From Artemia franciscana (taxonomy: Eukaryota > Arthropoda > Branchiopoda > Anostraca > Artemiidae), in assembly GCF_032884065.1 (NCBI RefSeq), contig NC_088866.1, positions 27,844,440 through 27,908,439 on the forward strand: 64,000 nucleotides of DNA, written 5' to 3'. How positions within the stretch are numbered: the first letter of the stretch is position 1; every line of letters starts with the position of its first letter. This document shows, piece after piece, positions 23,566 to 28,436 of this stretch. The notes under the pieces were generated by a model. The model did no database searches and was not told the origin of the DNA. It saw only the letters and a list, made by a program, of their open reading frames with translations. The position numbers and the translations under genes are program-made.

Positions 23566-26500
23566 AATGTAACATTGTCTTGGATATTCAGACCATCAAG
23601 CCATTCTATTATTACTATGATTTGAGAAATACTTTTTAGCAGAAAACTCTCCAAAGATTTACGATTCACACATTTCCTAACCATTAACTCCAAGCCGTAT
23701 AACTATCCATCAAATCACACTTGAATAGACCTCAAGTATTACGCTTTATGCACCAGAAGGCTCCATTTTTCGTGTTAGAAACAATTAAGTTTCTCAGAAT
23801 TGTCAAGAAAAAACACACTAGGGGAATTTGAATATACTAGATTTAAGCGAACAATCTGGAAAAAAAGTGGTCAAAAGTGAATAACAAGAAGGTTTTTGCA
23901 GACTCTAGTGGATAAAAATTGTTTTGGAAGGGAGGGGGTCATAGAATCAACAGGGTCTATGTTTAATAGAGACCCTTTCGAAAAGCATGATAATAAGAAG
24001 TTGAACTTGTACGTGGATGTTTTTCCTCGTGAAACTGATTTTGCTCATGTGTGTTCATTATTCGTTCCTTGAACTTGTCTTCTACTGATTTTTGTTCTGA
24101 TGCATCTTTTGCATCTCGATTTTTCTCTTCGTGAAACTTATACATTAATTTTTCCCCTAGTGAAACTGATTTTGTTTATAACTTGTTTCGAACTGGTTTT
24201 TGTTCATGGTAATTGTCGTTTGCTGATTTTCGTTCCTGAAACTTGTTGCATCTTCGTTTTTGTCTTCGTGCAACTTGTATATTGATTTTCACCTCATGAA
24301 AAATTAATCATGGAACGTGTTGCTTGCGGAATTTTTGTTCATGGAGCTTGCTGCATACTGATAGAATCTTGTTGCACGAGGATTTTTCACTTCATTGCGC
24401 GCTCATGGTTTTTGTTCGTGAAACCTTTTGAGCGTTGAAAATTTTTGAAACTTTTTGAACGTCCTCATTTTTTCCTCTGAGACTTGGAGCATGTTGATTT
24501 TCCTCTTTGTGGAACTTGTATATTGATGTTTCTCCAAGTGAAACCGATTTTGTTCATGGAACTTCTTTCATCCGGATTTTTTGTTCATGGAATTTGTTGC
24601 GTGCCGATTTTTGTTCTTGAAACTTCTTGCATGTTAATTTTTTCTTTTCGTAAAGCTAGTACGTTGAATTTTCTTCTCATGAAACTAATTTTGTTCATAG
24701 AACTTGTGTGTTGATTTTGTTCATGAAACTTGTTACTTGCCAATTTTTGTTTGTGAAACTTGTTGCATATTGATTTATCTCCTCGTGAAACTTGTACATT
24801 GATTTTTCAGTGCGGTAAACCAATTTTGTCATGGAACTTGTTGCGTGCCTTTTTTATTCACGGAGCTTGTAGCAAGAGGTTTTTTTGTCCGCGAAATTTG
24901 TTGCATATCGATTTTTGCTTTTCGTGAGAGTTTTCCATTTTATTTTCACCTCGTAAAACTGATTTCGCTCAGGAAACTGGTTAAGAACTGATTTTGGTTT
25001 GTGGACCTTATTGTGGGCTGTTTTTTGTTCGTAAAAATTGTTTCATGTTTATTTTTCTTTTCATAAAAAACTTGTACATTGATTTTTCTTCTCGTGACTC
25101 AGATTTTTATGAATGGAAATTCTTGCATGCTGATTGTTGTTCTTGGAACTTGTTGCGTGCTGATGTTTTTTTTTCATGAAACTTGTTACACATTGATTTT
25201 TCTCTTCGTGAAGCTTTTACATTGATTTTATTCCTCGTGAAACTGATTTTGTTCATGGAACTTTTTAGGTTAGGTTAGATTTTGGGTACTGTACAAAGCG
25301 AGTTGGAACCTACAACTAACCCTCACATTGTAGTGTAGGTCAAGTTAGGTTAGATGCCATGACATCTAACCTCAATGAAGCTAATCTACCATGTGTAAGT
25401 TAGGAGTAGGTTTCATACCGCTTTGCACAGTCCCCCAAATATAAGCTAGTGCGAGTCCCATAAAAAAAATCACTTTCACGGGGACAAAATCAACAGAAAA
25501 TTTTCACAAAAGGACAAATCTACATGTAACAAGTTTTACAAAAGAAATCAGCAAGCAATAAGTTCCAAGAAGGAAAATCAGCATGGACCAAGTTCCATGA
25601 GCCAAAATCAGTGTCTCGAGCAGAAAAATCCGTGTGGAAGTTTCAAAAAGAGAAAAATCAGCATTTAAAAAATTTCACAAACAAAAATCAGCATGCAATA
25701 AGTTTCATGAACAAAATCAGTTCCACGAGGTGCAAAAACCAATGTACAATTTTCAGGAAGAGAAAAAATCGATATGCAACAAGTTTAACGAACAAAAAAA
25801 TAAGCAATCAGTATGTTCCACGAATTAAAAATCAGAACGGAACGAGTTCCATTAACAAAATCGGTTTCATTATGTGAAAAATCAATGTTAAAGTTTCACG
25901 AGGAGAAAAAGCAACATGCATCAAATTTCACAAATAAAAATTAGCACGTATTAAGTTCCATCAACCAAAAATTATTATGCAACAAGTATCATGAAAAATC
26001 AGCTTCATGAGGAGAAAAATCAATTTAAAATTTTCATGAAAAGAAAAATCAACATTTAACAAGTTTCAAAAGCGAAAATCAGTGCGCAACAAGTTTAATG
26101 AACAAAATAAACATGCAACAAGTTCCAGGAATAGAGTCAGTTTCATGAGGAGAAAATCAATGCACAAGTTTTACGAAGAGAAAAAATTAGCATGCAACAA
26201 GTTCCACGAAAAACAATCAGCACACAGCAAGTTCCACGAACGAAAATCAACACGCAAAAGGTTCCATGAACAAAATAAGTTTCACAAGGAGAAAAATTAA
26301 ATGTACAATTTTCACGAACAGAGAAAATCGATATGCAACCAGTTTGACGAACGAAAAAATCAGTACGCAGCAAGCTCCACGAATAAAAAATTAACACACA
26401 ACAAACCGATTTTTGATTTTTCACGATGTTAAAAAACAATTTACGAGTTTCACGAAGATAAAAATCCACATACAACAAGCTCCATGAACAAAACCAACAC

Positions 26501-28436
26501 ACAACAAGCTTTGTGAACAAAATTAGTTTCATGAGGAGAAAAATCAACGTACAAGTGTCAAGAAGAGAAAAATTGAACGTGCAACCAGTTTCACGAACAA
26601 AAATCACCATACAACAAGTTCCATGACTAAAATCAGCTTTATGAGGAGAAAATCAATGTATAAGTCCATGAAAGAGAAAAATCAACATGCAATAACTTTC
26701 TCAAACAAAAATCACTACACAACAAGTTCCGTGAACAAAACCAGTACGCAACTAGCTCCGTGAACAAGATCAGTCTTATGAGGAAAAAATCCATTTCTGA
26801 ACACGAAGATAAATAATTGACCCGAATAATTTTACGAAGAGAAATAATTAACACGCTACAATTTTTGCGAGCCAACATGAGTATGCAACAAGTTCCAGGA
26901 ACAAAAATCAGCATGCAACAAGATTCTTGAACAAAATAAATTTTATCAGGAGTAAAAACCAATGTATGAGTGTCAAGAAGAATAAAAGCAACATGCAGCA
27001 AGTTTTTCGAACAAAAATAAGCAGACAACAAGTTTAGTTAACAACAATCAATATGTAACAAGGTCCATGAACAAAATCAGTTACACAAGAAGAGAATTTA
27101 ATGTACAACTTTAACAAAGAGAAAAATCAACATGCAAGAAGTTTCACGAATAAAAAAATCAACACGTGAGGAGTTTCATGGGCAAAATTTGTTGCATGAA
27201 GAATACATCAATGTACAGGTGTCGTGAAGAGAAAAATCAATATGCAAAAAGTTTCACGAATCATTAAGCACGTTCCAGGAACAGAAAAAATAACTACGTA
27301 TTGGGTTCCATCATGAAAATAAGTTTCACAGAGAGAAATCTTTGTACGAGTTTCACGAAGAGAAAAGTCAACGTGCAGCAACATTCACGAACAAAAATCA
27401 GGACGCAGCAAATTCCACAAATAAGAAGAAATCAGCACGCAAAGACTTTCACGAAGAAAATCAATTTGACGAGGCGAAGAAATCAATGTACAAGTTCACT
27501 ATATAAGAAATGAACGTATAAGAAGTTTCACAAACCCAAAAAAATCGACGCACAATATGCTCCGCGAAGAAAAACCAGCACGGAACAAGTTCCATGAACG
27601 AAGTCAGATTCGTGAAAGGAAAAATCCCAAGAACTAGAAAAAACCAGCATACAAAGAGCTCCACGAACAAAATTAGTTTCACGAGGAGAAAAAATCAGTA
27701 CACAAGTTTCACGAGGTGAAAAATCAACGTGCAATAAGTTTTACGAACAAAAATCAGCACACAAAAAGTTTCACGCGCAAAAATAAGCACGCAAAGAGTT
27801 TCATGAATAAAATAAGTTACACAAGGAGATAAAACCAATGTACAAGTTTTACGAAGAGAAAAATTCACATGCAACAAGTTTCACGAACAAAAAATTAGGA
27901 CACAACAAGTTCCATGAGCAATTTTTCACGAGGTGAAATATGAATATACATGTTTCACGAAGAGAAAAATAAAAGTGCAACAAGTTTCACGACCAAAAAT
28001 CATCACACGATCAGTTTCACGAGTAGAAAAACTAATGCATAAGTTTCACAAAGAGAAAAGTCAAGATGCAACAAAATTCATTAACAAAAACCAGCGAACG
28101 ACAAGTTCCAGGAACAAAAAAATCAACACGCGAGAAGTTCCATAAACAAAATTAGTTTTGGCAGAAAAAAATACCAATGTACAAGTTAAACTTCTTATCA
28201 TCATTCTTTTCGAGAGGGTATCCTTTTATTGATTTTTGTTCTTAGATATAGTACATGTTGATTTACATACAGCCCCCACAAATCCATTTCTATCCACCAT
28301 AGTATGCAAAAACCTTCTTATTATTCACTTTAGACCACTTTTTGTTTTACAGATTGCACGCCTAATTCTAGTATGTTTTAATTTTCTTAGTGTGTTTTTT
28401 CTTCATAATTCTGGGTTTTTTTCTAGCGCAAAGAAT
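23566..28436. mobile_element. Foldback-like element: ~4.9-kb imperfect palindrome with minisatellite arms
   Basis: The left arm (about 23777-25260) consists of degenerate ~30-bp units such as 'TTCGTGAAACTTGTTGCAT' + 'GTTGATTTTT'. The right arm (about 25440-28426) has the same units in reverse complement ('AATCAGCATGCAACAAG' + 'TTTCACGAAC'). Outer edges also match in inversion: 'AAAGTGGTCAAAAGTGAATA' (23872) with 'TATTCACTTTAGACCACTTT' (28322), and 'CTTTCGAAAAGCATGATAAT' (23970) with 'ATCATTCTTTTCGAGAGGG' (28200). Arms are unequal, about 1.5 and 3.0 kb. The inner loop is itself inverted. No credible gene is inside: open frames up to 155 codons arise because the unit is close to a multiple of three. 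The design recalls Drosophila FB elements; homology is not shown. Confidence 0.75.
25262..25440. repeat. Palindromic core of the foldback-like element
   Basis: The arms meet in a nested inverted repeat: 'GGGTACTGTACAAAGCG...' near 25283 opposes '...CGCTTTGCACAGTCCCC' near 25420. At the centre (25348-25373) is the 26-bp near-perfect palindrome AGGTTAGATG...CATCTAACCT. There is no minisatellite unit in this part. Confidence 0.75.

What the first reader, a model, noticed from the sequence alone, without database searches (positions are those of the whole stretch)
23777..28426. Giant foldback-like element with minisatellite arms
Seen: two arms of degenerate ~30-bp units in opposite orientation, matching non-repeat outer edges (23795-23990 against 28180-28420) and a palindromic core. 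Known: Drosophila FB elements have long inverted repeats built of short tandem units. Inference: this is an arthropod FB-like element, or a giant palindrome formed by inverted duplication of a minisatellite. The ~30-bp unit and the four-unit alternation (CATGGAACTTG, GTGAAACTTGTTGC, GTGAAACTTGTAC, GTGAAACTGATTTTG) do not correspond to any family I know.
Basis: partly seen in the sequence, partly recalled or inferred. Interest (0 to 1): 0.8.

Follow-up and report, generated by a model that had tools for sequence, protein, structure and literature searches.

The report
Giant foldback transposon with minisatellite arms
Two opposed arrays of a short repeat meet here at a self-complementary core whose sequence recurs at 32 places in this genome; three of four relatives with both ends lie between short copies of their insertion site, so this stretch is likely a decayed jumping element whose arms would fold back on each other and could exchange or extend their repeats.

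Summary
Window 23712-28441 is a real inverted structure: non-repeat edges (82% over 135 bp), a 1266-bp array, a 185-bp palindromic core and a 2735-bp array in opposite orientation.

It is not unique. The core query matches 32 places. Of 13 core loci examined, 10 have both arms facing the core, 3 have lost one arm, none is the wrong way round. The left edge has 12 other matches. Eleven outer ends of seven relatives were compared; nine start with GTAG. Of four copies with both ends, three show 8-bp target-site duplications (8/8, 7/8, 7/8) and one does not (4/8). The joined flanks of one match seven uninterrupted paralogous sites.

So this is likely a non-autonomous foldback-type transposon family with exchangeable tandem-repeat arms, closest in architecture to Tetris of Drosophila virilis. 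The window copy is decayed: its own termini and duplication were not found, and its left side is traceable to 20751. The transposase superfamily is unassigned; FB/MULE or P membership is not shown. One relative carries, inside its right end, an inverted copy of its left end plus host flank (99.4% over 1.67 kb), suggesting that arms copy from each other.

The parts
20751..21054 (+). outermost traceable part of the left side (X-type repeat); the match to relatives stops at 20751
   Evidence: aligns to both ends of the C215 relative: concatenation 3194-3360 and, inverted, 14708-14413
21055..22526 (.). stretch without a match in the relatives compared, inferred to be inserted (tRNA-like stretch 21773-21832; 21863-22500 is a 94% copy of 10144-10795)
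   Evidence: copy within the window; Rfam tRNA 46.6 bits
22527..23371 (+). X repeats of the left outer domain
   Evidence: internal repeat 22527-22773 vs 23122-23371 at 74%; homologous in L009, L010, L014, L015, L016
23497..23708 (+). Y segment of the left outer domain (preceded by AT microsatellite 23368-23493)
   Evidence: homologous outside the edge in L009 (both ends), L010, L013, L014, L015, L016
23712..24001 (+). Z, left non-repeat edge
   Evidence: 14 matches genome-wide, two of them the window's own edges (query 23777-23990); inverted partner at 28188-28441
24002..25267 (+). left arm: about 46 units, higher-order repeat a-b-c-d-a of 139 bp
25268..25452 (.). palindromic core, the fold axis, rich in GGTTA/TAACC motifs
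25453..28187 (-). right arm: about 97 units, same higher-order repeat in opposite orientation
28188..28441 (-). Z', right non-repeat edge
   Evidence: 82% over 135 columns to the left edge, 72% over 232
28446..28778 (+). X-type repeat abutting the right edge in direct rather than inverted orientation; origin unexplained
   Evidence: 73% to 22892-23216 over 330 columns

Best explanation
The stretch at 23712-28441 belongs to a dispersed family (edge, tandem-repeat arm, palindromic core, inverted arm, inverted edge) and is likely a decayed non-autonomous foldback-type DNA transposon that would have been moved by a transposase acting on outer ends this copy has probably lost. Shown: the family is dispersed; the core lies on the axis wherever both arms are kept; relatives share similar outer ends, nine of eleven starting GTAG; three of four copies with both ends show 8-bp target-site duplications; one has paralogous uninterrupted sites. 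Inferred: a transposase encoded elsewhere cuts at those ends and makes an 8-bp staggered cut at the target; the repeat units may be extra transposase-binding sites, as proposed for Galileo; unequal exchange changes the number of 139-bp and 30-bp units, so arms differ in length; because the arms are inverted copies of each other, replication or repair can switch between them, which would homogenise arms, exchange repeat types and sometimes copy flanking DNA into the element. Untested: the transposase superfamily, whether any copy still moves, and the window copy's own insertion site.
For: Dispersal: the edge query has 12 matches outside the window copy (C215, C510 and C1 hold two each); the core query, which includes about 28 bp of array at either end, matches 32 distinct places, counted by me from 57 listed matches. 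Axis: 13 core loci examined (12 of the 32, the window copy included, plus C215); 10 have + array left and - array right, 3 (L028, L055, L056) lack one arm, 0 reversed. Ends: 11 ends of 7 loci aligned, 9 start GTAG (C7 left reads ATAA, L012 right ATGG). Edge Z, arrays and core are linked to these ends through L011 and L012 (Z plus ends), L010 (Z, array, end) and C7, C3, C15 (ends, array, core). TSDs: C3 TTTTGAGC/TTTTGAGC, L011 TAATTTTA/TAATGTTA, L017 TTGTTTGA/TTGTTTTA; 8, 7 and 7 of 8 matches, while in these three 3-7 bp and 9-12 bp give no comparable agreement. Random flank pairs reach 7 of 8 with frequency 0.0012, and three of four elements did so in 0 of 200,000 draws. Uninterrupted sites: C3 flanks joined match across the junction at seven sites that I aligned, four of them in this window. 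No Pfam domain in four open frames between 21022 and 27037.
Against: The window copy has no recognisable ends and no TSD (profile scans). C7, the fourth copy with both ends, shows 4 of 8 at the aligned boundary (7 of 8 only after shifting the two ends by different amounts). The boundary was chosen by eye, with the GTAG start as a guide, and the random-draw test does not allow for that; the end profile recovers mostly its own training ends, and the C7 and L010 matches begin only at profile positions 26-66. The C215 palindrome, which shares the window copy's outer domain, ends without a visible TSD. No autonomous copy was found; the genome-wide search with the family's end did not complete (21 attempts). 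All seven uninterrupted sites have four bases (ATAG in five, ACAG and ATTG in one each) beside the target that C3 lacks, so they are paralogs, not the exact pre-insertion allele. Joined flanks of L011 and L017 gave no uninterrupted site among the loci held.
Confidence: 0.85

Rival explanations
1. A giant palindrome formed in place: a local minisatellite was inverted and duplicated by fold-back replication, without transposition.
For: The window copy lacks termini and TSD; copying between arms that includes host flank is seen in C3.
Against: One core matches 32 places, and relatives share outer ends with 8-bp duplications and, for C3, uninterrupted paralogous sites; local formation would not give these.
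Confidence: 0.08
2. A narrower claim, compatible with the best explanation: it belongs to a named superfamily with foldback members, FB-type (MULE) or Galileo-type (P superfamily).
For: Architecture resembles Tetris and Tm1 (PMC4079207, sections read; PMC3169594, passages); MULE-domain frames up to 1368 aa exist in this genome (18 matches); Galileo TSDs are 7 or 8 bp in D. willistoni (PMC4168063, passages).
Against: Eight MULE loci, two of them also at 9 kb, show no match to the start of the end profile (best is an internal stretch, positions 282-434, in L041, E 9e-7); the P-type search did not complete; 8-bp duplications are also made by hAT and other superfamilies (recalled), and hAT domains are abundant here (150 matches scored of 3103 candidates).
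Confidence: 0.3
3. A Helitron or Helentron-type vehicle carrying tandem repeats.
For: A Helitron helicase-like domain lies in the same window (58185-59048), and Helentron-borne satellite-like arrays are described (PMC7492417, search listing only).
Against: Long inverted arms, inverted ends and 8-bp duplications are not Helitron features (recalled); no Pfam domain in the four open frames scanned here.
Confidence: 0.02
4. Assembly artefact (foldback read or mis-joined haplotypes).
For: Foldback artefacts exist in long reads (PMC12870357, search listing only); reads are not available here.
Against: The two arms differ in length and by roughly 18-33% where aligned, and the same arrangement is assembled at 10 loci. 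A fresh artefact would give identical arms; only the C3 99.4% tract could be suspected.
Confidence: 0.02
5. A functional hairpin locus (small-RNA or regulatory source).
For: The core folds strongly, and inverted repeats can make double-stranded RNA (recalled).
Against: No Rfam match between 20700 and 29900 except a tRNA-like stretch; arms are degenerate and unequal; no expression data were available.
Confidence: 0.04

Closest known systems
Tetris (Drosophila virilis), PMC4079207 (abstract, sections 10 and 17, part 1 of section 16)
   Same: Apparently non-autonomous foldback with modular TIRs: flanking domain, tandem-repeat domain, inner domain, and a middle domain without coding capacity; variable repeat number; 8-10 bp TSDs; no known transposase.
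   Different: Repeat is about 220 bp there, a 139-bp higher-order repeat of about 30-bp units here; TIR up to 1,735 bp there, about 5 kb per side in C7 here; here the middle is a conserved 185-bp palindrome and different copies carry different arm repeats.
Galileo (Drosophila, P superfamily), PMC3573991 (abstract, section 7, passages) and PMC4168063 (passages)
   Same: Long internally repetitive TIRs, TIR-only and chimeric copies, TIRs lengthened by tandem repeats or by recruiting neighbouring element sequence; 7- or 8-bp TSDs in D. willistoni.
   Different: P-type transposase known there, none linked here; TIR at most about 1.26 kb in D. mojavensis. End sequences were not compared.
Tm1 (Meloidogyne, Mutator/Foldback), PMC3169594 (passages)
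   Same: Composite TIRs with variable numbers of short tandem units, differing between the two ends.
   Different: About 14-bp units, mostly 9-bp TSDs, Phantom-like transposase; the transposase-bearing example is 2,593 bp.
FB elements of Drosophila melanogaster (recalled; cited in PMC4079207)
   Same: Inverted arms built of short tandem units around a small loop.
   Different: Higher-order structure, palindromic core and 8-bp TSD here; no link to a MULE/NOF transposase shown. Unit sequences were not compared.
Macro-dyad satellite arrays of Tribolium madens, PMC13081366 (abstract and outline only)
   Same: Tandem repeats in mirrored arrays with the potential to form large hairpins and with conserved inversion sites.
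   Different: Megabase (peri)centromeric satellites there; dispersed kilobase elements whose relatives have ends and TSDs here.

Membership tests
Foldback-like (TIR-tandem) DNA transposons as an architecture | Long inverted arms built largely of tandem repeats | tested here: met
Foldback-like (TIR-tandem) DNA transposons as an architecture | Modular TIR with outer non-repeat domain, repeat domain and small middle domain; unequal arm lengths | tested here: met
Foldback-like (TIR-tandem) DNA transposons as an architecture | Dispersed copies with common termini | tested here: met
   dispersal; 11 ends of 7 relatives, 9 starting GTAG; not shown for the window copy
Foldback-like (TIR-tandem) DNA transposons as an architecture | Target-site duplication of 7-10 bp | tested here: met
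   3 of 4 relatives with both ends, one of these perfect and two with one mismatch; not seen for the window copy or C215
FB/Mutator (MULE) superfamily | MULE/NOF/Phantom transposase with the same ends | tested here: inconclusive
   18 MULE matches; end profile scanned on the 8 returned loci and on 2 of them at 9 kb, no match to its start
FB/Mutator (MULE) superfamily | TSD of about 9 bp | tested here: inconclusive
   8 bp is the best length in three relatives; 8-10 bp is reported for Tetris and Tm1 (PMC4079207, PMC3169594)
P superfamily (Galileo) | P-type transposase with the same ends | not tested
   search not answered
hAT superfamily | hAT transposase with the same ends | tested here: inconclusive
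   hAT domains abundant but loci were not cut out, so ends were not compared
Helitron/Helentron | Helitron coding domain inside the structure | tested here: not met
   no Pfam match in four open frames between 21022 and 27037; non-coding Helitron ends were not searched for

The most novel reading that the evidence does not exclude
The inverted arms are a self-copying device: repair or replication switches from one arm to the other, so palindromes of this family grow outward, swap whole repeat arrays (30/139-bp and 242-bp types on related ends) and draw flanking host DNA inside the transposon ends. The C3 copy, with a near-identical inverted copy of host flank lying inside boundaries that carry a perfect 8-bp duplication, would be a snapshot of how foldback transposons grow and how DNA transposons capture host sequence.
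Probability: 0.3. Interest if true: 0.7.

Novelty: new variant of a known kind. Interest (0 to 1): 0.5.

Why it matters
How foldback elements acquire and extend their tandem-repeat arms, and how DNA transposons pick up host DNA, are open questions (recalled; gene-capture models seen as passages in PMC13317346). This family offers tens of copies in one assembly, with a conserved fold axis, a clear higher-order repeat and one recent-looking copying event that crosses the element's boundary, so arm growth and array exchange could be traced copy by copy.

Tried and rejected
A three-base duplication (TAA) at an apparent C7 end, read by eye, was dropped when more copies placed the end further out. 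C215 was taken as the key to the window's outer ends; its palindrome extends to concatenation 2882 and 15020 but has no visible TSD. The end profile scanned on the window gave only 43989 (E 0.04, an internal profile stretch), discarded. MULE frames were checked as the autonomous partner and not linked. Joined flanks of L011 and L017 gave no uninterrupted paralog among the loci held. The 80-91% outer part of the C3 arm pair may be an older duplication or two copies of a common repeat, since the C3 flank matches that repeat in the window and other loci; only the 99.4% tract is used as evidence of copying. No telomeric array in the first 1,500 bases of two contigs, so the host group was not inferred. 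Literature: seven full-text searches listed no paper that I recognised as describing this family; they did not search by sequence, and repeat libraries such as Dfam or Repbase could not be searched.
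Full report
What is there. The window lies at G000:C4:27844440-27908439 of an unnamed 1.27-Gb genome. Between 23712 and 28441 it holds, in order: a non-repeat edge (Z), a 1266-bp array of ~30-bp units on the + strand, a 185-bp palindromic core, a 2735-bp array of the same units on the - strand, and an inverted edge (Z'). The inverted relation is far beyond chance for the edges and for the core, and the core folds as single-stranded DNA with z -8.7. In the window arms 39 of 45 and 81 of 96 neighbours follow that order, against at most 28 and 50 in 10,000 permutations of the labels. 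The unit assignment itself is lenient: shuffled arms also yield units, but leave more than ten times as many bases unassigned.

It is a family. The left-edge query has 14 matches, two of them the window copy's own edges and 12 elsewhere. The core query gives 57 matches, which I count as 32 distinct places; the query includes about 28 bp of array on each side, and some weaker matches cover less than half of the core. I examined 13 core loci: the window copy, C215 (found by its edges, not in the list of 32), and 11 of the other 31 places, namely the best-scoring ones except C17:7870381, which I did not fetch. In 10 the core has + units on its left and - units on its right; L028 and L055 have only the - array, L056 only the + array; none is reversed. 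The aligned cores agree on a palindrome with GGTTA/TAACC runs and, in several, a central GATGACGYGTCATC. Arm lengths differ within and between copies.

Outer ends. Extending C7 showed a palindrome of about 11 kb whose arms include sequence outside the arrays. Comparing 11 ends of 7 loci placed the boundary, by eye, at a common start, GTAGTATCCCC in the best-preserved copies; nine ends start GTAG, C7 left and L012 right do not. Four loci have both ends. With the boundary fixed there, 8-bp direct duplications are 8/8 in C3 (C3:25639622-25648938, 9.3 kb), 7/8 in L011 (C4:40132446-40135961, 3.5 kb), 7/8 in L017 (C21:28388137-28391425, 3.3 kb) and 4/8 in C7 (C7:41779035-41790231, 11.2 kb). A pair of random flanks reaches 7 of 8 with frequency 0.0012; three of four did so in 0 of 200,000 draws. 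Joining C3's two flanks gives a sequence that matches paralogous sites across the junction without interruption; I aligned seven of them, four in this window. The element thus sits in a dispersed repeat whose other copies lack it. These paralogs have four extra bases beside the target, absent from C3. The same test gave nothing for L011 and L017.

How the window copy connects. L011 and L012 join edge Z to the ends; L010 joins Z and the array to such an end; C7, C3 and C15 join the ends, the array and the core. The window copy has Z, arrays and core. Its left side continues outward through Y and X repeats to 20751, with an unmatched, probably inserted stretch at 21055-22526; the C215 copy carries the same X-Y domain on both sides, inverted, as part of a 12-kb palindrome without a visible TSD. 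The window copy's own ends and duplication were not found, and a direct X copy at 28446-28778 next to the right edge is unexplained. I therefore call it a decayed or rearranged copy.

Modularity. On related ends or edges, copies carry different arm repeats: the 139-bp repeat (window, C215, C7, C15, C3 and others), or a 242-bp repeat (L012, where two opposed arrays meet with a 5-bp spacer; L011 and L017 in shorter form). C15 and C7 have further repeats of roughly 240 and 355 bp between the array and the end. L030's left arm is split by about 3 kb with frames that look like reverse transcriptase by eye (not scanned against a library).

A copying event. In C3 the stretch 4801-7697 of the concatenation (2.3 kb of left flank plus 575 bp of the left end) aligns in inverted orientation to 15542-12588, 89.5% overall, inside the true right end at 16439. 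Between 5811 and 7482 the two differ at about 10 positions (99.4%), and this tract crosses the host-element boundary at 7123; windows outside it are 80-91% identical. So left end and host flank were copied together into the right arm, or were homogenised there. The lower-identity part could be an older duplication or independent copies of a common repeat, which this flank matches elsewhere. Switching between arms during repair or replication is the simplest mechanism; this is inference, and reads would be needed to exclude an assembly fault at this locus.

Transposase. No Pfam domain was found in four open frames between 21022 and 27037, nor in three from relatives. MULE domains match at 18 places and hAT domains at 150 scored of 3103 candidates, but no link to these ends could be made. 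The eight MULE loci returned, two of them also fetched at 9 kb, show no match to the start of the end profile; an internal profile stretch (positions 282-434) matches L041 at E 9e-7. P-type and Merlin-type searches and the genome-wide search with the family's end did not complete.

Comparison. Tetris (PMC4079207; abstract, sections 10 and 17, part 1 of section 16) has the same architecture: flanking, tandem-repeat and inner TIR domains, a middle domain without coding capacity, 8-10 bp TSDs, no known transposase. Galileo (PMC3573991; abstract, section 7 and passages) shows TIR growth by tandem repeats and by recruiting neighbouring element sequence, and its repeats are said to hold secondary transposase-binding sites. 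Tm1 (PMC3169594; passages) shows short-unit composite TIRs. The present family differs in the higher-order repeat, the conserved palindromic axis, the size of the arms and the interchangeable arrays. It works like a foldback transposon; membership of the MULE or P superfamily is open.

Verdict. Observation confirmed; foldback-like interpretation supported for the family and, by its edge, arms and core, likely for this copy; a new variant of a known kind.

Noticed in passing
window 25268-25452 and cores of 12 other loci: The core is rich in GGTTAGGTTAGG / CCTAACC motifs, resembling the TTAGG telomere repeat of many insects (recalled); meaning unknown.
   Followed up: partly
window 2930-4174, 13135-14559, 53967-55540; L009, L010, L012, L030: A ~290-bp tandem repeat recurs in both orientations in the window; similar consensus units are reported in L009, L010, L012 and L030.
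   Followed up: no
window 21773-22545: A tRNA-like stretch followed by a sequence that is 94% identical to 10144-10795 and contains an inverted pair (22085-22228 / 22394-22545); possibly a tRNA-derived mobile element on the outer left side.
   Followed up: partly
window 28446-28778: Left-flank X repeat abuts the right edge in direct orientation; inversion, tandem junction or independent insertion not resolved.
   Followed up: partly
L016 (G000:C1:36500-46000): Two tandem copies, about 1760 bp apart, of the X-Y-Z-array unit (98.6% over the 1300 bp compared), about 41 kb from the start of contig C1.
   Followed up: no
window 18737-20676: A 272-bp tandem repeat whose consensus holds a CCCCCAGGGCCTGGGGG palindrome; weaker copies elsewhere in the window.
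   Followed up: no
window 59599-60669: About 1 kb of T tracts punctuated by AG and C in nested 323-351 bp periods.
   Followed up: no
window 58185-59048 (-), 51809-52423 (-), 52844-53518 (-), 38330-39127 (+): Helitron helicase-like domain; reverse transcriptase domain just under Pfam's cut-off; endonuclease domain; BTB domain.
   Followed up: partly
G000:C11:14418887 and C15:12722992: MULE-domain frames of 1368 aa; the two fetched loci are 99% identical over 6.3 kb and 98% over a further 1.5 kb, an apparently recent mobile family not linked to these ends.
   Followed up: partly
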